Source: a virus. Taken from it: DNA of 28,699 nucleotides. The DNA is taken from IMG/VR virus record IMGVR_UViG_3300005534_000037, positions 1-28,699 of that record. One strand, given 5' to 3'. Shown here one piece after another: positions 1-28,699 of this stretch. The notes under the pieces are model-generated. The model was given only the letters and a program-made list of their open reading frames with translations, was not told the origin of the DNA and did no database searches. A program made the position numbers and the translations under genes. Numbering within the stretch: position 1 is the stretch's first letter; the number at the start of each line of letters is the position of its first letter.

Positions 1-3000
1 TGCCGATCCCAGCCATGTCCGGCGCCTGCTCCGGCGAGCCGGCGAGCGTGTAGCTCACTGTGTCGATCGGACTCACGCCACCGTACGGATCACGGTAGCG
101 CACGCCAGCCGTGTAGGAGCCGCCGCCTAACCCGCGCAACCAGTCGATGATGCTGCCCGGGAACGCCGAGTCGACGATGTCGGCGCCGGTCGGCGGCCCC
201 GCGCCGGCGACGTTCAGCACCTCGATCGCGCAGTCAGCCTCCGTGTTGAACCAGAGGAGGAGCACCGAGCTTCCCGTGATGCTGGACGCGCTGAGCCCCG
301 TGGGCGCCGTCAGCGCCGTCGTGTCGAGGTATTCGGTGGGCGGCGGATAGACCCACGCCGAGGGGAGACCGCCTGCGCCATCAACGCCCGAGACGCTGCG
401 CGCGCGCCAGAAGATCCGCGAGCCCGACGGCAGGTCCGTGACCGAGAGCGTGCGCGACGTCGTGAGCCGCCCTGCGTAGCGCCAGCCCGGATCGCTGTCC
501 GCCGGCCGAACGGCGGTCCCCGCCGGTTGCGCGTTCCAGTAGACGGCGGCCGGATCGTTCGCGGCGTCGAGCGTGACCGCGATGTCGCCATCGAACCGCG
601 TGTCCACGCCCGCCGTCGGGCTCGCGAGCGTCGGCGTGTTGAGCGCGGTCCCCGCGCCCCCAGCGTCGATGCAACGCAGGTAGACGGTGCCGGTGTCGTG
701 GTCCTCCGTGCGCTTCAGGCAGAGGACCAGGCGCGAGCCGCCGCGCGTGTTGCTCGCGCTGTTGGGCTGCTTCGTGATCGTCGCCGTGAACCACGTGCCT
801 TCCGTGACCGCCAACGCGCGCGTCGTCGGCAGGCACCAGAGCGTCAAGTACTGCGCGCCCGCTTGGAACGGCGCCAGCGTCTCATCGAGGAGCTCGGCGA
901 GATTCGCCACCACCTCGGACACGTTGGACACGCTGCCGTCCAAGTGCACGAAGCCGTGGTACGCGAGCGCATCGAGCGTCTGCGAGTGATCGCCCAGATC
1001 CCGCGCGCGCCCGGTGTTGTTGATCAACACCTCGGGCACCTGCTGCTCGTCGATGAGACCGCCCGCGATGTCCGGAATCGTCGGGTCGTCGAAGTGCGTG
1101 AGCTTGTTGAGATTGAGCTGCTGGTCGACGTACCACGTGGCCGTCATGCGCGTGATCGCGTCGTTGTCCGCCTGCTCCCATTCGACCGCGTTCGGATCGC
1201 TCACGAGATCGGTGTCGGTGAGCTCGATCGTCGCCGCCGCCGAGGCCGAGAGGCGCAAGTCGAGCGGGATAACACTCCCGTCCTCGCCGAGTCGAAAGCC
1301 TAACGCAAACTGCGAGCAGATATTGTCGATGAGCCACGTCGACACCGACGCATCGTTGCCGGAGCCGTCTGAGGCGACGAGCTTCTTGATCACCCAATTG
1401 CCGTTGGGGATCGTGGTGTCGGCGATGAGCGCGGCGAAGGCGGCCGCGTCGTACTTGATCGCGGTGAGCGGGGCGCCCGTCGCGGCGTCCAGGTAGCCGA
1501 ACTTTCCGTCCAGGATGTCCTTCCAGAGCTGCACCGGATGGACATCGCTGATGAACATGGGCTGCGCGTCGGTGGGGCCGATCGCCGGCGTGATCGTGAT
1601 GCCGCCGATCGACCCGCCGGCTGCGGGCAGGTCGGCATCCCATGGCGACTCGGAGCCGTCGACGCCGATCTTGACGCCGTAGACCGCGCAGAGGCGGTAC
1701 GTGTCGCTCGTCTCGTGCTGACTCGGGATGTGGCTCCAGATCGAGCGGAGCGCGTACTGGTGCCCGTTGACGTTGAGGGTGATCGCGTCGCCCGTGAAGT
1801 CCCAGCGGATGGCGAAGTTCGTGTCCTCGGCCGAGGCGCGCGCGTTGAGCACCACGTTGTCGGCTTGGTCCAGGAGCGCGTGCGTGAGCGTGTTCTCGGG
1901 GTCACGGCGTCCGTTGCACTCGATGACTTTGGTGAAGCCCTGCACGGCCGCGCGGACGATGCCGGTAACCGGCGTCAGCACCGGGAAGCCGCCGAACGCG
2001 ATCGGCAAGCCTAACGGACAGTAGGGCGCGAGCGCGGCGTACGTGATCGAGGTGTGCGGCTGGCCGACAAAGAGGTCCGCTTCCATGTCGTCCTGCAGGT
2101 CGCGGATCTGGGTCGTGTAGCGCTGCAGTCCCGAGAGCACCGGATTCCGCACGCGACCCGTCGCGAAGGTCGCCCACGTTGCGCCGCCGTCCAGCGAGCG
2201 CTCGATCACGCAGCGGCACCCGCCTAACTGCACCACGCCGTCGGTCCCGCCTAAGAAGGCGGTGAGCCACCGCTCGAGGTTGGACGTGCCCGTGCGCTTG
2301 TCCAAGAACTCGAGCGTCCAGCTGCCCTTGTCCGTCGCCTTGGCTAAGAGATCGATCTGGCCGCGCTCGCCCGACACCGTGTCGAGATACGGCTTGTACG
2401 TGATGCCGGTGTCCGTGAACTCGGGCAGCGTCGACACCGCGAACACGTCGGAATGCGGCGCGCCGGCCGCGGGCACCAAGAGTTGCGACTCGGTGCTGTC
2501 GTTCTGGCTCTTCGGCTTGTAGAAGCGCGCGCGGTAGGCCGGCGTGTAGCCGGAGATGGGCACCGTGTCCGAGCGGCGCAGCACGATCTTGAGCGCGCGC
2601 GAATAGTCGGGCTCGGCCGACGGCGGGCTGCCGGCGTAATCGCCCATCGCCGGCTCCAGGAGCTCGGCGACGAAGTACGTGGGGCTCGTGCCGTCCGGGA
2701 AAAAGAGGAACGTGCCGCCGTTCCAGCAGTACTCGAGAAACGCTTCCCAGCCCGACGCGCCGTCCCAGCCGGTCGCGATCGTCGCGCCTAACCCGTTCAC
2801 CTCATCGGTCGCGGGGATGTAGCGGATCATGCCCGAGAGGCACCACTCCGTGCCCTCGGTCCAGGCGTCGGTCTCGCCGCTTCGGATCTGCTGCACGTCG
2901 GAGCCTTTCGACATGCGCGGATACGCCGCGGCCTCGTCGAGGGGGTAGCGCAGCACGAGCGGCGTCGCGAGTCCGCCCGGAAACCACGTGATCTTGGGGC

Positions 3001-3052
3001 GCGTGCCGAGCGAGGAGCCGGAGGGAATCGGGCCCGGGGCTAAGATGGTCAC
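1..3052 (-). CDS. Tail-tip / baseplate hub-like protein with Fn3-like C-terminal region (partial, runs off left edge)
   Basis: I translated the minus strand from a GTG at 3052-3050 and found no stop codon down to position 1, giving about 1017 codons with the 3' end outside the window. The start lies 4 bases after the stop of the upstream distal tail gene. Residues about 20-162 match the C-terminal domain of that upstream protein (GATIATGWD at 89-97, FFPDG at 117-121, LLEP at 131-134). The middle is a long region without a motif I can name. The last 200 or so residues are rich in Thr, Ser, Pro and Gly, with short strands like fibronectin type III repeats (for example SPTAGVDT, APTGLSASS). Position after the tape measure and first distal tail gene fits a tail-tip or host-contact protein. 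TTA-GGC Leu-Gly pairs recur (125, 1298, 2009, 2222, 2786). The function is inferred from gene order and size; the open frame is directly seen. Confidence 0.85.
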   Translation of the reverse strand, partial: MTILAPGPIPSGSSLGTRPKITWFPGGLATPLVLRYPLDEAAAYPRMSKGSDVQQIRSGETDAWTEGTEWCLSGMIRYIPATDEVNGLGATIATGWDGASGWEAFLEYCWNGGTFLFFPDGTSPTYFVAELLEPAMGDYAGSPPSAEPDYSRALKIVLRRSDTVPISGYTPAYRARFYKPKSQNDSTESQLLVPAAGAPHSDVFAVSTLPEFTDTGITYKPYLDTVSGERGQIDLLAKATDKGSWTLEFLDKRTGTSNLERWLTAFLGGTDGVVQLGGCRCVIERSLDGGATWATFATGRVRNPVLSGLQRYTTQIRDLQDDMEADLFVGQPHTSITYAALAPYCPLGLPIAFGGFPVLTPVTGIVRAAVQGFTKVIECNGRRDPENTLTHALLDQADNVVLNARASAEDTNFAIRWDFTGDAITLNVNGHQYALRSIWSHIPSQHETSDTYRLCAVYGVKIGVDGSESPWDADLPAAGGSIGGITITPAIGPTDAQPMFISDVHPVQLWKDILDGKFGYLDAATGAPLTAIKYDAAAFAALIADTTIPNGNWVIKKLVASDGSGNDASVSTWLIDNICSQFALGFRLGEDGSVIPLDLRLSASAAATIELTDTDLVSDPNAVEWEQADNDAITRMTATWYVDQQLNLNKLTHFDDPTIPDIAGGLIDEQQVPEVLINNTGRARDLGDHSQTLDALAYHGFVHLDGSVSNVSEVVANLAELLDETLAPFQAGAQYLTLWCLPTTRALAVTEGTWFTATITKQPNSASNTRGGSRLVLCLKRTEDHDTGTVYLRCIDAGGAGTALNTPTLASPTAGVDTRFDGDIAVTLDAANDPAAVYWNAQPAGTAVRPADSDPGWRYAGRLTTSRTLSVTDLPSGSRIFWRARSVSGVDGAGGLPSAWVYPPPTEYLDTTALTAPTGLSASSITGSSVLLLWFNTEADCAIEVLNVAGAGPPTGADIVDSAFPGSIIDWLRGLGGGSYTAGVRYRDPYGGVSPIDTVSYTLAGSPEQAPDMAGIG

Positions 3053-3056
3053 GGCG

Positions 3057-4076
3057 TCAGTATCCGAGCACGGGGCCGCCTAACGAGCGCAGCGTCAGGT
3101 CCTGCTTGAAGCGCTTCTGTCCGTCTTTGTCCGGCGGTCCCGCATCGATCGGCTCGACGAGCAACACGGGGTAACTCACCGCGAGGTTGGAGGCGTCGGG
3201 GTAGAACGTGAGCACCTGCTGGTCGCGCGCGGCGATGAGGAACTGCTGCCACCCGTCCGCGTCGTCCCAGCCGGTGATCGTGGCGCCGTCGTCCTGCGTG
3301 CCGCCGATCGCGGGAATGCGACGCGCGGTGCACTTGAAGAGCTCATCGATGCCGGCGAGCGCGCGGAGCCGGCCGAGCGGGCCGTCCAACATCGTGGAGT
3401 TCTTCCGCGGCTGCGGGTAGCTCTCCCCGACGTCGCAGTAGAAGCGGAGGCCGCCCGATGTGCTGAGCGGCGTGCTGATCGAGAGCGCGTCCCAGAAGAT
3501 GAGCCGCTCGAGCGAGCTGCCATCGGCGGTAAAGTCGAAGACGCCGAGCTTGACCGTGAGCTGCCCGCTCACGTCCGTGACCGCATCGATCTCGAGCGTC
3601 TCCCACTCGTCGAACGCGCCGAGGTAGGCCGATGCGGCGCCGATCTGCATGCCGATCGGCGTCGATGCTGGCGAGCCGCCGTTGTGGAAGCCCACGCCGC
3701 ACGCGCAGCGCACGACGACCGCCGTGGACGGCGGGAGCCCGGTGAACGTGCGGCTCACGTACATCGTCGGGTTGGGGCCCGGCGCGCCGCCGTCGTTGAA
3801 GAGGCAGCGGAGCGCCTGCGCGCCGTCGTACTTGGCGCCCGGCGCGAACGCGCTGCCGGCGCCCTCGCTCACGACGTCGAACGAGGAGGCGCCCGACGTG
3901 TTCACCTGGGTCGTCGGCCACGTATCGACGAGCGGGGTGAGGCCGTTGGCGTCCGTGCCTGTGCCGGTCGCGTTGTTGTTGAAGCCCTCGAAGGGCTCGA
4001 AGGCGATCGGCGTGTCAGTGGTGACGCCCACCCAATCGATGCGCGCGACCTTGCTCCGGTTGACGCCCCTACCCAC
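3057..4076 (-). CDS. Distal tail protein with carbohydrate-binding-like N-terminal half
   Basis: A 339-residue protein starting at a GTG whose bases overlap the TAG stop of the tape measure gene (GTGGGTAG), so translation is probably coupled. Residues about 24-205 look like a beta-sandwich of the type seen in carbohydrate-binding modules: FEPFEGFNN near the start, alternating beta-like stretches, and FWDALSIS near residue 194. Residues about 208-339 form a second domain with GATITGWDD (264-272), a YPDAS motif (292-296) and LLVEP (305-309). The same domain opens the next protein, which suggests duplication. The position just after the tape measure is where distal tail (Dit-like) proteins are usually encoded in siphophages. 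The structural role is inferred from order; no Dit signature was recognised in the sequence itself. Confidence 0.8.
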   Translation of the reverse strand: MGRGVNRSKVARIDWVGVTTDTPIAFEPFEGFNNNATGTGTDANGLTPLVDTWPTTQVNTSGASSFDVVSEGAGSAFAPGAKYDGAQALRCLFNDGGAPGPNPTMYVSRTFTGLPPSTAVVVRCACGVGFHNGGSPASTPIGMQIGAASAYLGAFDEWETLEIDAVTDVSGQLTVKLGVFDFTADGSSLERLIFWDALSISTPLSTSGGLRFYCDVGESYPQPRKNSTMLDGPLGRLRALAGIDELFKCTARRIPAIGGTQDDGATITGWDDADGWQQFLIAARDQQVLTFYPDASNLAVSYPVLLVEPIDAGPPDKDGQKRFKQDLTLRSLGGPVLGY

Positions 4077-7000
4077 GGCGCGAGCCTCGGCGCGTGCGGA
4101 TCACCATACGCCGGTCGCCCACCTCTTCACGCATGCGATTGTAGTTGGCGAGCTGCGTCGGGTCGCGCGGATCGAATTTGTCGCCCTCCCAGATGACGAC
4201 GGCGCTGCCGGTGAGCGCGGCCATCGCGGCCTGACTCGCCGTCTGCTGCCGGCTTGCGCTCGAGCCACCGCCGCCGCCGCCGCCACCACCACCGCCGCCG
4301 GACCCGCTGATCATGCCGCCTAACGTCGCCATCGCGGCGGCTGCCGCCATGTACTCTGCCGCAGCGGCTAAGTGCTGCCCGGCCATCGCCGGGTCCGCGA
4401 TCGCTTCCGCGATTTGCTCGATGGCCTTGCCCATCCAGAGCTTCGCGAACGACTCGGCCACCTCCGCGATCGCGCTCTTCATGGCCTTCTTGAACGCGTC
4501 GCCGGCGTTCTTGGCACCCGCGCCTAACGCCTCGAAGGATTTGATGAAGCCTTCCGCGAATGCCCCCGAGAGGAGCGACGCGATGTCCTGAATCGAGACC
4601 TTGACCTCCTGCAACCGGTTGCCGGTTTGTGTGAGGCCCTGGTTGATCTGCTGGAGCGCCGTGGTCGGACTGCTGCCCGCGTTGTGCGACTTCGACTGCT
4701 TGGTGGTCACGGTGGCGCCCGGCAGCAGCATCGCGGCCGTTGAGTCGGGCATCATCGCCATCTGCGCGAATTCCATGAACTGCTCGGCCGAGCGCTGGGA
4801 CCGCGCCGGCTCGGTCAGGATCTCGTTGAGCTTGATGAGGCGTTCCTTGAGCTTCGCGATCTCCTCGTAGGCTTTGACCTGCTCGGCGGAGCCGGGTTTG
4901 AGCGTGGCGAGCAGTTTCTCCTCAGCCGCGAGCTGCTTGTCGGTCTCGTCTTTGATCGCCGCGAGGCGGTCGAGTTCGCGTTTCCCGAACTCGGCGCGGA
5001 TGGGCTCGAGTTGCTGGTCGATCACGCCCATCTGCGCCTTGAGCCGAGCCCGCTCGCGCTCGATGCCCGCGAGGTTCTGCTCAGCGATTGCCTGCCGCGC
5101 GATGTTGTCCGGGGACAGCGGGCCGGCAACCGAGGCGAGCGATGCTTTGGTCAATTCGTCGCGCGCGGCCGCCTCCTTCTGCTGCAACTGCGCGTCGCGG
5201 ACTTGCATGTCCGCGTACTTGACCTGCAGATCGGTGACGCCTTTCAGTTCGTCGCGCTGCAGCGCGCGGATCTTCTCGAGCGCGGCAATCTCGCCGTCCA
5301 AATCCTTCTGCAGCCGCGCGGCTTTTTCGGGGTCCTCGGCGTCCGGGTTCGGCAGCGCCGGATTCGGATTCCGCGGCAGCTCCTTGCTTGAGCCGAGATG
5401 ATACGTGGCGCGGTCCGCCTGTGCCTGCGCGCTCTTGTCCTCGGGATGCGCGAGTAGGTAGTCGACGCGATCGGCGCCGAGCTTGTTCGCAGCCTCGTTC
5501 GTCGCGCGGAGTTTGACATCGGCGTCCACCAGATTGCCTAACGCGCCGACGAGCTTCTCCTGGCCCGTGATGGAGACGGTGAGTTGCTGCTCGCGCGCGT
5601 ACGCCTGCGTGCCCGGAATCCGGCTGCTGATCGGATTCCGGATTTCGTTCATGAACTGCTCGGCCTCGAGCACGAGGAGCCGCGTGCGCTCCCACGCTTC
5701 GTTCACCGCGTCGATGAAGATGCGGATCGAATCGATGCCGTATTGCAGGAACTCGGCGATCTTCGGCTGGTTCTGCGCGAGCTTGTTGACCCAGTCGATC
5801 ATCTTCTGGATCATCGCGCCGAACGCCGTGTTGACGCCGGACTCGCCGATCGCCACCGCGAGCTTGAAGAGCGCGGTCTTGAGGTTCGTGACCTCGCCCG
5901 ACAGCGTCTTCATCTGGTCCTGCGCGGCGTTCGGGAACGCCTCGCCGATGTGCTGGATGTACGCCGCGATGCTCTCCGAGTCGGCGTGCACCGTCGTGGT
6001 CATGCCGTGGAACGTGGCTGTGAACGTCTTCGTCGTTTTGTCGAGATTCGAGATCTGCACGCCCACGTTGCTCAGTTGGTTCTTGAGCGGGCGCATCATG
6101 TCGGCGTCGGCCGAGCGAATCGCGAGCGCCAGATCCTCGATCGTGCTCTTCGACAACACCGCCACGTTCGCGAACGCCTGCATCTCGCGCTTGGTGGGCG
6201 AGAGGCCCAAGCCTAACAGCCGCTGGTAGCCCTCCGTGATGTCCTGGAGGGTGAACGGCATCTTCGTTTCGATGTCGATGAGCGACGCGATCGCGTCCTT
6301 GGCGACCGTCGCACTGCCTAAGAGCGTCGTGAGGTTGATCGAGAGGCGCTGGAACTCGCTGTTCGCGTCGTAGAGCCACTTGCCGATGCCACCGAGTCCG
6401 CCTAACGCGACCAAGCCCGGGAGCGAGGCGACCGACGTCCAGATGCTCGAGATCGCGCTTCCCAGCCGTTTGACGCCGCCCCAGACGCCTTCCACGATCG
6501 AGCCCAGCCCGCGGAAGAACGCGGCGATCGGGTGCGAGGCGCCGCCCGCGACCTTCCGCTCGATGGCGGTGATCTCGTTCTCAAGCGCTTTGACGCCCTG
6601 GACGTTGGGCCCGATCTCTTTGATCCACGCGCGCTCGGCCGACGCCGCCTGCTGGAACGCTTTGACCGCATCGCGATCGGTGACATCGATCTGCTGCCGC
6701 AGCTTCGCGAAGCCAGCGATGGATTCCGCGACCTCGGCCCTGAGCGCGAGCCCCGAGGCGCCGCCGCTGACTTTCGTCGCCACGGAGGGCGCTGCAGTCG
6801 TCCGCCCGGTGATCTTGCCGAAGATGCCGGAGAGGAAGCCGCCCGCTTTCTGCGCGCCGCTCGCGAGTGCCGCGAAGGCGCTCTCGCCCACCTGCTTCGC
6901 TTTGTCGAGCGCCTGGGTGATGAGCGAGGTGTGCGACGCAAACTGGCCGGCCGTGTCGCGCCAGCGGTTCGCGACCTGGTCGAACTGGAGGCCCTGCGCG

Positions 7001-25987: not shown

Positions 25988-26430
25988 GACGCCGCCTCCC
26001 AACGCAGTTTCAGTTGCGTCGGATGCAGGTCCACCCGCAGCCGCGACTGACAGTTCCACGAGCCACCACCGGCCTCACCGAGACACTTCCATCCGGCCGC
26101 GACGAGCGACGTGCCCGGCTCGGTGGCGAGCGTGTACGTGATCAGTCTGCGGTAGCCTAACGCGCGCACGGCGCGCCACGCGGCGCCGTAGAGTTTGCTC
26201 GCCGCGTGTTGTGTTCCGTCCGTGCAGCAGCGCGTGACTTCAGCCGTCCACGAGGCTTGCAGGTTCCGCGCGACCGGTCGTCCGATGATCGCGACGCCGC
26301 AGATATGATCCGTACCAACGGCGACGCAACAGATACAGCCACGCGACGGGCCGTGGTGGCGATGGTGCTCGCGCACGAAGGCGTTGGCCTCGCGCAACGT
26401 GATCGGCACGAGCATGAGCGGCGGCGTCAC
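25984..26430 (-). CDS. XF1762 family protein
   Basis: 148 residues from GTG 26430, overlapping the methyltransferase stop (GTGA). The protein matches the phage XF1762 family closely: LVPITLREANAFVREHHRHH near the start, GVAIIGRPVAR around 44, EVTRCCTDGT near 64, then ASKLYGAAWRAVRALGYRRL, and SWNCQSRLRVDLHPTQ at the C-terminus. The layout suggests an acetyltransferase-like fold, but the reaction is not established in my knowledge. The gene is widespread in phage accessory blocks. A TTA-GGC word lies inside the conserved ALGYRRL segment (26155). Confidence 0.85.
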   Translation of the reverse strand: MTPPLMLVPITLREANAFVREHHRHHGPSRGCICCVAVGTDHICGVAIIGRPVARNLQASWTAEVTRCCTDGTQHAASKLYGAAWRAVRALGYRRLITYTLATEPGTSLVAAGWKCLGEAGGGSWNCQSRLRVDLHPTQLKLRWEAAS

Positions 26431-27173
26431 GCAACCTCCGCGTGGTGCTCAGGCCGATAGACGTGCGCGATGTGTTGCGCTAACGCGAGCGGGATTTTGG
26501 CAATCCGCGCCGACTCGGCCTTGCGGGATAGCGACTTGCTGTTCGTCGCGCGAATCGCGCCGGGCGATGAGTTGTGGAACCAGGTGCCACCAACCTTCCG
26601 GCCGTCAGGATTGTTTCCGCGTCCGCTGCCTGTGTTGTGCGCGACGTTGAACCACGACCCGCCACTATTCTTCATCGCCCGGTCCGCGCCCATGGTCTCC
26701 ACCTTCACGGCGCGCATCGTGATCGGCATGAGCGCCGGCACATCGCCCCACAGGTAGTAGGAGCCGTAGTGCCAGCGCGCGCGCCCAGCCCACCGCTGCG
26801 CGCCGCACACGTTCTCTTGGACCATTGGGATGTACCGTCCCGCAGCGGCGCACGCTTCGCGCTGGATGCGAGCCGCTTGCGCGAACAACTCCATGCCTAA
26901 CTCTGGCGGTCCAAGCGCCTTGGCGCGCTTCCACGGCATCGCGCGGTAGCTGAACTCCTGGCACGGCGAGCTCGCGACGATGATCGCCGCGTCCTTGAAT
27001 TGCGTGCCGTCGAGCGTGCGCACGTCTTGCAGCACGAGCTGCGCCGGGTAGCGGTGCGCGCCGTAGACGTGGCGCTCGATGTCGAAGCCGATGCACTCGT
27101 AGCCCTCGGCCAGAAACCCCTCGGTCCAGCCGCCGAGGCCGCAGAAGAGGTCTATGCAGAGCGGCTTTCTCAT
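26427..27173 (-). CDS. C5 DNA cytosine methyltransferase
   Basis: 248 residues from ATG 27173, overlapping the stop of the upstream gene (ATGA). C5-methyltransferase motifs are visible: motif I DLFCGLGG (8-15), motif IV SSPCQEFS (68-75) with the catalytic Cys 71, motif VI QENV (119-122), and a C-terminal SRKAESARIAKIPLALA segment (216-231) like motifs IX-X. It is short for a complete C5 enzyme; the region between motif VI and the C-terminus, where the target recognition domain should be, is a Gly/Asn-rich segment (GSGRGNNPDGRKVGGTWFHN). It may have a minimal recognition domain or depend on a partner. No restriction enzyme gene is nearby, so it is more likely a self-protection methylase. Confidence 0.86.
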   Translation of the reverse strand: MRKPLCIDLFCGLGGWTEGFLAEGYECIGFDIERHVYGAHRYPAQLVLQDVRTLDGTQFKDAAIIVASSPCQEFSYRAMPWKRAKALGPPELGMELFAQAARIQREACAAAGRYIPMVQENVCGAQRWAGRARWHYGSYYLWGDVPALMPITMRAVKVETMGADRAMKNSGGSWFNVAHNTGSGRGNNPDGRKVGGTWFHNSSPGAIRATNSKSLSRKAESARIAKIPLALAQHIAHVYRPEHHAEVA

Positions 27174-27736
27174 CGCCGGATGGCTCCGAACTCGGCCGCG
27201 AGCCGGTCGCGCCGGCTGGGCAGCACGCACGGCAGGTCCGCGAGCGCGAAGAACGCTTCCTCGGTCTCCGTCGGCACGATCTCGCGCGTCGCCTCGTGGA
27301 TCACGTGGCCCTCGCGGTGCACGTACCCGCGATCGATCAGCCGGCGCATCGCGAGCGCGCCTAACTCTTGGGGCCCGGTGCGAATCGCGAGCAGGCTGCC
27401 CCACGCGCTCGGCGGCATGCGCACGAAGAGCTCGCACGCGACGGCCGGGTCATCGTAGAGCGCGGCGCGCATGTGCCGGGAGCCGCCGACGCGGATGTGG
27501 CCGATGTCCAGCTCGACGCGGTGCCGGATGGCTTCGACCTCGTAGACGGGCTCGCCGAAGAGCGCGGGCTCGGTGCGCGGCTCGACCAGGAGCTCGATAT
27601 CGCCGACGTCGGGTCGTTCGCGGCGGAGCGAGCCGACGATGACGCCGCGGGCGATGACGGGCGCGAGCGTGGTGAGCACGCGGGTGGCGATCGCGAGCGC
27701 CTCCGCGCGCGGCATCCGGCGCAGCGTGACGCTCAT
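27170..27736 (-). CDS. Small polymerase-X-like nucleotidyltransferase
   Basis: 188 residues from ATG 27736, overlapping the upstream stop (ATGA) and the next start (ATGA). The DNA-polymerase-beta-type palm is visible: VIVGSLRRE (33-40), then PDVGDIELLVEP (42-53), where Asp 46 and Glu 48 match the two metal-binding acids. The segment ACELFVRMPPSAWGSLL (100-116) aligns with the third acid region; it has Glu 102 where most have Asp. The C-terminal ETEEAFFALADLPCVLPSRRD resembles the polymerase X thumb end. No N-terminal helix-hairpin-helix or PHP domain. It could be a minimal repair polymerase or a nucleotidyltransferase of another use. The two neighbours are a methyltransferase and a small unknown gene. 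Confidence 0.76.
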   Translation of the reverse strand: MSVTLRRMPRAEALAIATRVLTTLAPVIARGVIVGSLRRERPDVGDIELLVEPRTEPALFGEPVYEVEAIRHRVELDIGHIRVGGSRHMRAALYDDPAVACELFVRMPPSAWGSLLAIRTGPQELGALAMRRLIDRGYVHREGHVIHEATREIVPTETEEAFFALADLPCVLPSRRDRLAAEFGAIRR

Positions 27737-27951
27737 AGGTCGTCGACCTGAATCTGCCAGCGCACTCGTTCTTCCGCAGCCTGATACATCTCGCGCAACG
27801 CAGCGAGGTGCTCACGCCGATCACTCTCGGCGCTTTCAGGGCCGACGTATTCGTCCGTGTGCGCCTCGCAGCAGAAAATCGCAGACCGTAGAAGGTTACG
27901 GCACTCCCGCAGTCGCTTCAGCGTCAACCTTCTGGTGGGCGCGTTAGGCAT
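27733..27951 (-). CDS. Hypothetical protein, 72 residues
   Basis: Starts at ATG 27951. That ATG overlaps the stop region of the upstream HNH-DUF4326 gene (AATGCCTAAC: ATG-CCT-AAC for this gene, GCC-TAA stop for the other). Sequence is helical and basic then acidic (LTLKRLRECRNLLRSAIFCC, then REHLAALREMYQAAEERV). Two adjacent Cys (FCCEAH). No family recognised. Its stop overlaps the next start (ATGA). Confidence 0.66.
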   Translation of the reverse strand: MPNAPTRRLTLKRLRECRNLLRSAIFCCEAHTDEYVGPESAESDRREHLAALREMYQAAEERVRWQIQVDDL

Positions 27952-28354
27952 TGGCGATGTCCAGCAGCACGTCGGCGTGACAGGGGGTGTCGAGCTTGCA
28001 CCAGCACGCGAGGTTCTTCCCGCGCAGCGCGCGCCGGATTTCGCCGGTCGTCGGTGGCACTCCGATCGTGTCATTGAGTTCACCCGCGAGCCACGCGCGG
28101 AAGTCTTCGACCGCGTCGTATCGCGTGGAGCGACGATTGTCGAGCTTATCACGATTGACATGGTCGGTCTCCTGGCCCAGACGCGCGGAGATGATTTCCC
28201 TGTGTAGATAGACGGTCCTGCGTCGGCCGCCGGAATATTCAACCCGGAACGCATAGCCGTTCGGGTGTAGCCACCACCGATGCTGCGATTGCGTTGTGTA
28301 ATCGGCTTCATCGACGACCGCATGTCCGCGCGGGTGCAGCGCGATGGACATCAT
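27944..28354 (-). CDS. HNH endonuclease-like domain fused to truncated DUF4326
   Basis: 136 residues from ATG 28354 (a second ATG follows at once). Residues 5-75 form an HNH homing-endonuclease-like unit: DEADY near 15, RWWLHPNGYAFRV, VYLHREI with His 51, and DHVNRDKLDNRRS (64-76) with Asp 64, His 65, Asn 67 and Asn 73. From residue 78 the sequence matches the second half of DUF4326: YDAVEDFRAWLAGE, then LRGKNLACWC (110-119) and CHADVLLD (125-132). The usual DUF4326 start with the 'SKWGNPF' segment is missing, as if the HNH domain replaced it. No frameshift is visible. The product may be a genuine fusion or a recombinant remnant. First gene of the leftward array. Confidence 0.75.
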   Translation of the reverse strand: MMSIALHPRGHAVVDEADYTTQSQHRWWLHPNGYAFRVEYSGGRRRTVYLHREIISARLGQETDHVNRDKLDNRRSTRYDAVEDFRAWLAGELNDTIGVPPTTGEIRRALRGKNLACWCKLDTPCHADVLLDIANA

Positions 28355-28573
28355 GGGAGCGACCACCGCGCGACGGCGAAGAGGGCGCCGAGCGAGACGG
28401 GCGCACCTCCCGGACTGGTGCGGACAGACACGCGTGCGGCGCGTCGGGAACGCGCGCATCCCGATTGCGGTCCCGTTACGGTTTCAATCGCCGCCTTTGG
28501 ATGCTTTTCGGGTTCGAGAAGCGCGTTTTCTCCGCCGTTTTCGCTCTGAAGGAGCGGAGACGCGGTTTTACTG
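28355..28573. other. Gap without a recognised gene between the first phage gene and the tRNA fragment
   Basis: No convincing gene on either strand. Short frames exist, but they lack Shine-Dalgarno sites and coding-like composition. The stretch contains several TTTTC/GAAAA runs (for example GCGTTTTC, CCGTTTTCG, GCGGTTTT near 28521-28570) and an inverted CTCCGC/GCGGAG pair (about 28528-28557), which could be integrase or host-factor binding sites next to an attachment core. That use is inference. Confidence 0.4.
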
Positions 28574-28610
28574 CATCGGTAGGTTGTAGGTTCGATTCCT
28601 ACAGGGCGCA
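28574..28610 (+). other. tRNA 3'-end fragment, probable phage attachment core
   Basis: On the plus strand: variable loop AGGTT (28581-28585), T stem GTAGG (28586-28590), loop TTCGATT (28591-28597), T stem CCTAC (28598-28602), acceptor 3' strand AGGGCGC (28603-28609) and discriminator A (28610). The anticodon and D arms upstream cannot be folded and no GCGCCCT partner is found 5', so only the 3' part of a tRNA is present. A terminator follows at once. This is typical of the half of a tRNA att site that lies on the host side. Confidence 0.7.
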
Positions 28611-28612
28611 CT

Positions 28613-28657
28613 CACGAGGCGCAACGACCGATAGGCGTTGCGCCTCGTGTTCTTTCT
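28613..28657 (+). terminator. Intrinsic terminator after the tRNA fragment
   Basis: A perfect 14-pair stem CACGAGGCGCAACG (28613-28626) / CGTTGCGCCTCGTG (28636-28649), a 9-base loop, then TTCTTTCT on the plus strand. It is a strong intrinsic terminator directly after the tRNA 3' end, as in a normal tRNA gene, so the sequence to its right is probably host chromosome. Confidence 0.85.
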
Positions 28658-28699
28658 CGGCACGGTATCCACCGCGAGCATCCTTGTCGTCGATGCGCC

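What the first reader, a model, noticed from the sequence alone, without database searches (positions are those of the whole stretch)
27944..28354. HNH endonuclease-like domain fused to a DUF4326 that lacks its N-terminal half
The protein joins an HNH-type unit (LHREI, DHVNRDKLDNRRS) to the C-terminal part of DUF4326 (LACWC...CHADVL) with no linker and no stop between. The DUF4326 start normally contains a SKWGNPF-type segment, and that is absent. The joint lies right after the conserved DNRRS of the HNH unit. It could be a new domain architecture with both activities, or the fossil of an HNH gene that invaded a DUF4326 gene and deleted part of it. I know of no described protein with this layout, but I cannot search.
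Basis: partly seen in the sequence, partly recalled or inferred. Interest (0 to 1): 0.6.

Follow-up and report, generated by a model that had tools for sequence, protein, structure and literature searches.

The report
Broken HNH nuclease joined to DUF4326
A phage gene really does join the front of a homing nuclease to the back of another phage protein, but the joint removes essential parts of both, so it is most likely an inert one-off recombination scar rather than a new two-headed enzyme.

Summary
The 136-aa ORF at 27944-28354 (-) is real. Residues 1-76 are the N-terminal half of an HNH-AP2 homing nuclease. Residues 77-136 are the C-terminal half of DUF4326 (PF14216).

It lies just before the "N" of H-N-H: the equivalents of I-HmuI Asn87 and Asn96 (Asn in 89/89 and 87/89 relatives) are Thr77 and Arg86, and the AP2 domain is gone. 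On the other side, the whole DUF4326 front is missing: two core beta-strands and the GNPF loop, which about 160 of 168 distinct relatives keep in some form.

No other HNH-DUF4326 fusion turned up: none among 176 other distinct DUF4326 ORFs, 754 surveyed genomes, or the phage and plasmid collections. A frameshift is excluded, because the missing parts are in no reading frame. A syntenic relative (G003) has unrelated genes at this spot, an accessory region beside a possible att site.

Best reading: an HNH gene and a DUF4326 gene fused by illegitimate recombination or deletion, giving a probably inactive product. Neither half shows decay, so it is recent, or less likely repurposed. An assembly chimera cannot be excluded. 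Low interest.

The parts
27944..28354 (-). Chimeric ORF, 136 aa (P0001): HNH N-terminal fragment joined in frame to DUF4326 C-terminal fragment
28127..28354 (-). HNH fragment, aa 1-76: keeps H51-R52 and D64-H65, ends at DNRRS; lacks the catalytic Asn helix and the AP2 domain. GC 0.59, GC3 0.68
28126..28127 (-). Joint between codons 76 (Ser) and 77 (Thr); ...CGTCGCTCC|ACGCGATAC...
27947..28126 (-). DUF4326 fragment, aa 77-136: keeps C117, C119, C125, H126, A127, A134, N135; lacks beta1, beta2 and GNPF. GC 0.66, GC3 0.82
27733..27951 (-). 72-aa ORF whose ATG overlaps the end of the chimera (ATGCCTAA); no relatives found
28562..28610 (+). tRNA 3'-end-like sequence, a possible att site (sub-threshold: 22 bits against gathering score 29)
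   Evidence: ARAGORN found no whole tRNA

Best explanation
A recent chimeric gene remnant. In a variable accessory region next to the phage's possible att site, an HNH-AP2 homing endonuclease gene and a DUF4326 gene were joined in frame by illegitimate recombination or deletion, which removed the 3' part of the first (both catalytic Asn and AP2) and the 5' part of the second (two core strands and the GNPF loop). The ORF can be translated, but the product is predicted to have neither HNH nicking activity nor the DUF4326 activity, whose nature is only predicted in the literature. Shown: the ORF, the exact joint, which conserved parts are missing from each half, and the absence of the same fusion elsewhere in what was searched. 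Inferred: the recombination route, loss of activity, and recency (from intact conserved residues and frame).
For: HNH side: the H+12 residue is Asn in 89/89 relatives and H+21 is Asn in 87/89, but Thr77 and Arg86 here; the profile aligns to I-HmuI 1u3e, whose residues at these spacings correspond to Asn87 and Asn96 (Asn87 role in PMC2816704). L127 shows the complete HNH_3 + AP2 relative. DUF4326 side: 150 of 168 distinct relatives have the letters GNP, about 160 with variants; intact DUF4326 is modelled with confidence (pLDDT 93.8) with strands at 2-4, 17-19 and 86-89, and the first two are missing here. In the fusion model the HNH N-lobe is good (about 94), but the DUF part drops to 57-64 and the LACWC strand does not form. 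Uniqueness. Region variability: relative G003 shares the 27170-27736 gene at 87.5% DNA identity but has unrelated genes upstream of it, after an integrase-like gene. The HNH half has lower GC than the other half and most neighbours.
Against: No stop, frameshift or loss of conserved residues in either half, which could also mean selection. The fusion model used only 6 DUF rows, so its low confidence there is partly a shallow-alignment effect. The recombination parents were not found, so the route is not shown.
Confidence: 0.66

Rival explanations
1. Assembly chimera: the contig joins reads of two phages at this place, and no such gene exists.
For: No second contig carries the joint. The two halves differ in GC. 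The near-identical contig L129 stops at window 25295 and does not cover the joint. The locus is 345 bases from the contig end.
Against: The joint is in frame, and each side continues as a normal gene: a complete HNH start upstream, an overlapping ATGCCTAA gene junction downstream. No reads were available to test it directly.
Confidence: 0.17
2. Functional new architecture: the HNH beta-rich lobe serves as a binding or scaffold domain for a DUF4326 C-terminal unit, giving a repurposed protein.
For: Intact frame; all residues invariant in the C half of alignment A1 are kept; the HNH N-lobe is modelled with confidence. DUF4326 fusions to other domains, including R-M components, are described (PMC7824862).
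Against: Found once only. Both halves lack near-universal functional parts. DUF4326 loses two of its core strands and the model does not rebuild the fold. The AP2 DNA-binding domain is missing.
Confidence: 0.09
3. Split gene: an intron or homing insertion carrying HNH sits inside a DUF4326 gene, with the DUF4326 5' exon beyond the contig end.
For: HNH genes live in phage introns and as in-frame insertions (PMC3428280, PMC11855218).
Against: No intron family match in 27900-28699. No DUF4326 N-terminus in the window. The HNH itself is truncated. A tRNA-like possible att site lies between the ORF and the contig end.
Confidence: 0.04
4. Frameshift or base-call error that merged two adjacent intact genes.
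For: HNH genes do occur within about 1.3 kb of a DUF4326 gene in another phage, L221.
Against: The missing parts (HNH Asn helix, AP2, GNPF segment) are in no reading frame near the joint.
Confidence: 0.01

Closest known systems
HNH_3 (PF13392) / HNH-AP2 phage homing endonucleases, I-HmuI type (PDB 1u3e); nearest copies L127 and Bacillus phage Stahl gp75
   Same: N-terminal lobe, LHRE and the TDHVNRDKLDNRRS segment with the general-base His; 40-44% identity over 76 aa
   Different: Ends before the central Asn, the metal-binding Asn helix and the AP2 domain
DUF4326 (PF14216; phrog_464), described in PMC9503650 as a rhodanese-phosphatase clade predicted to process ADP-ribose-related phosphates
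   Same: C-terminal half with the GKNLACWC...CHADVLL.IAN motif; up to 65-67% identity to relatives
   Different: Lacks the RIQL...NTVKVDR...GNPF half (two core strands and the conserved loop)
Other N-terminally short DUF4326 ORFs (L075/L080, L116)
   Same: C-terminal motif without the GNPF half
   Different: No HNH part; may be remnants or start-site or frame issues

Membership tests
HNH homing endonuclease (I-HmuI / HNH_3 type) | General-base His in a D-H motif | tested here: met
   D64-H65
HNH homing endonuclease (I-HmuI / HNH_3 type) | Central Asn (I-HmuI Asn87 equivalent, H+12) | tested here: not met
   Thr77; Asn in 89/89 relatives
HNH homing endonuclease (I-HmuI / HNH_3 type) | Metal-binding Asn/His in the helix (Asn96 equivalent, H+21) | tested here: not met
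   Arg86; Asn in 87/89 relatives
HNH homing endonuclease (I-HmuI / HNH_3 type) | C-terminal DNA-binding domain (AP2 in the nearest relatives) | tested here: not met
   Absent from P0001; present in L127
HNH homing endonuclease (I-HmuI / HNH_3 type) | DNA nicking activity | not testable with these tools
   Needs an assay
DUF4326 (PF14216) | Profile score above the curated cut-off | tested here: met
   50.7 bits against 25, nearly all from positions 33-81
DUF4326 (PF14216) | C-terminal LxCWC...CHAD motif | tested here: met
DUF4326 (PF14216) | N-terminal half with two core strands and the GNPF loop | tested here: not met
DUF4326 (PF14216) | Enzymatic activity predicted in PMC9503650 | not testable with these tools
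   No activity has been shown for the family in the papers read

The most novel reading that the evidence does not exclude
A selected, functional chimera in which the HNH beta-rich N-lobe replaces the front of DUF4326, so a nuclease-dead HNH module aims or stabilises a minimal DUF4326 C-terminal unit: a case of new protein birth from two phage gene fragments.
Probability: 0.08. Interest if true: 0.5.

Novelty: new variant of a known kind. Interest (0 to 1): 0.18.

Why it matters
If real, it is a clean example of how phage accessory regions make in-frame chimeras from a homing nuclease gene and another gene. It would matter more only if the product proved functional. It also warns that a profile hit well above the Pfam cut-off (DUF4326, 50.7 bits) can come from little more than half a domain.

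Tried and rejected
Frameshift between adjacent genes: rejected. Intron: no Rfam match. Mycobacterium abscessus prophage hits covering 99% of the query: looked like the same fusion, but the genes there are ordinary DUF4326 proteins with an RIQRKRTRGWRMP...GNPF start, and the N-terminal alignment is a chance extension. DSS3_MAL1 hit: likewise ordinary DUF4326 with GNPF. phiGD53-3 has an HNH gene directly before DUF4326, but of another HNH type. The mixed alignments A3 and A6 for structure prediction misplaced HNH rows and were discarded for the smaller A5. No solved structure matches DUF4326 by sequence.

Full report
Observation. The ORF at 27944-28354 on the minus strand is open, 136 aa, and starts where HNH relatives start (MMSIALH... 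against MKxIPLS...). Its C half matches Pfam DUF4326 at E=2e-12, but only profile positions 33-81 of 82. Its N half matches phage HNH endonucleases: Stahl gp75 40% over aa 1-76, E=5e-8; others ending at aa 75 or 76. A small HNH profile and a DUF4326 C-terminal profile built here give 1e-21 and 4e-26 for this ORF in a six-frame search of the window, with nothing else near. The joint is codon 76/77.

What is missing on the HNH side. Relatives continue DNRRS-NLR.CT..QN..N and then an AP2 domain (L127: HNH_3 E=9e-9; AP2 E=3e-6, just below its curated cut-off). The relatives' profile aligns to I-HmuI, PDB 1u3e. Counting from the general-base His, I-HmuI Asn87 is H+12 and Asn96 is H+21. The role of Asn87 (hydrogen bond to the base) and of an Asn metal ligand in I-HmuI is summarised in PMC2816704; the number 96 is from my own knowledge of the I-HmuI structure and agrees with the spacing seen. 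Among 89 distinct relatives H+12 is Asn in 89 and H+21 is Asn in 87; in P0001 they are Thr77 and Arg86. So the protein keeps only the first H of H-N-H.

What is missing on the DUF4326 side. Of 168 distinct DUF4326 ORFs from viral and cellular contigs, 150 carry GNP and about 160 a recognisable variant; the others are short, cut or apparently frameshifted copies. AlphaFold2 on an intact relative (L008, 79 sequences) gives pLDDT 93.8, with strands at 2-4, 17-19 and 86-89 plus a hairpin at 35-46 and three helices. P0001 lacks everything before the first helix. Its own model (20 sequences) has a good HNH N-lobe (about 94 up to residue 50), a weak HNH core (68-73), and a DUF part falling to 57-64 in which the LACWC strand is not formed.

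Search for the same fusion. Two scans of IMG/VR for DUF4326, one from the HNH side, one across the joint, an exact 32-base joint search, one scan of 84,980 species genomes, the phage and plasmid collections, and a survey of 754 genomes of two classes gave no second case. Every hit of the class surveys is either HNH ending at aa 77-78 or DUF4326. Across all loci fetched by then, 176 other distinct DUF4326 ORFs carry no HNH domain. The scans need short conserved peptides and keep the best 80, so a rare diverged fusion could be missed.

Surroundings. The window is a phage fragment with terminase, portal, major head protein and tape measure genes. Its 46-kb relative G003 (L131; 82-92% DNA identity over long stretches) carries the 27170-27736 gene at 87.5% identity. 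Upstream of it, where the window has the chimera, G003 has unrelated genes, preceded by what reads as a tyrosine-recombinase-type integrase (my reading of the translation). The window has a tRNA-3'-end-like sequence at 28562-28610 (below threshold), a possible att site. The chimera thus sits in a variable region between that site and the early genes. The HNH half has GC 0.59 and GC3 0.68 against 0.66 and 0.82 for the DUF half and 0.80-0.93 GC3 for most other genes, consistent with a foreign origin but not proof; the 72-aa gene next to it has a GC3 just as low.

How it most likely arose and what it does. A frameshift is excluded, because the lost segments are in no frame. Simple insertion of an HNH gene into DUF4326 is unlikely, because the DUF4326 front is not upstream within the 345 bases available and the HNH is itself truncated. 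Illegitimate recombination, or one deletion between an upstream HNH gene and a downstream DUF4326 gene, explains both losses in one step; HNH genes on either side of a DUF4326 gene on the same strand are seen in L221. The product is most likely inert. The conserved residues that remain are intact, so the event is recent or, less likely, the protein is used.

Known context. [quoted passage not shown] An HNH-DUF4326 fusion was not mentioned in the passages read (the HNH fusions named there are to SLOG). In-frame HNH-bearing insertions in phage genes are known (ShiLan, PMC11855218), but there the element is an insertion in a methylase gene and not a joint of two truncated genes.

Verdict. Observation confirmed; the two-activity reading is disfavoured; the fossil reading is supported with the change that both partners are broken.

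Noticed in passing
L221:938-1586, 2812-3208, 3551-4226: A DUF4326 gene flanked on both sides, within about 1.3 kb and on the same strand, by HNH-AP2-type genes: a layout from which such a fusion could arise by deletion.
   Followed up: partly
L075:4995-5360 and L080; L116:2947-3348: DUF4326 ORFs without the GNPF half; possible remnants or short versions.
   Followed up: partly
L123:2638-3126: DUF4326 ORF whose GNPF region and C-terminus look frameshifted.
   Followed up: no
window 26427-27173 (-): C5 cytosine-specific DNA methylase-like gene (PF00145, E=4e-10, matching only residues 6-79).
   Followed up: no
window 27170-27736 (-): Gene with a sub-threshold DNA polymerase beta palm match (PF14792); 87.5% DNA identity in relative G003.
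   Followed up: partly
G003 (L131, L154, L155): 46-kb relative with the same gene order but a different start point: its last bases match window 25.6-25.7 kb and its first few hundred match around window 23.7 kb, suggesting a circularly permuted genome.
   Followed up: partly
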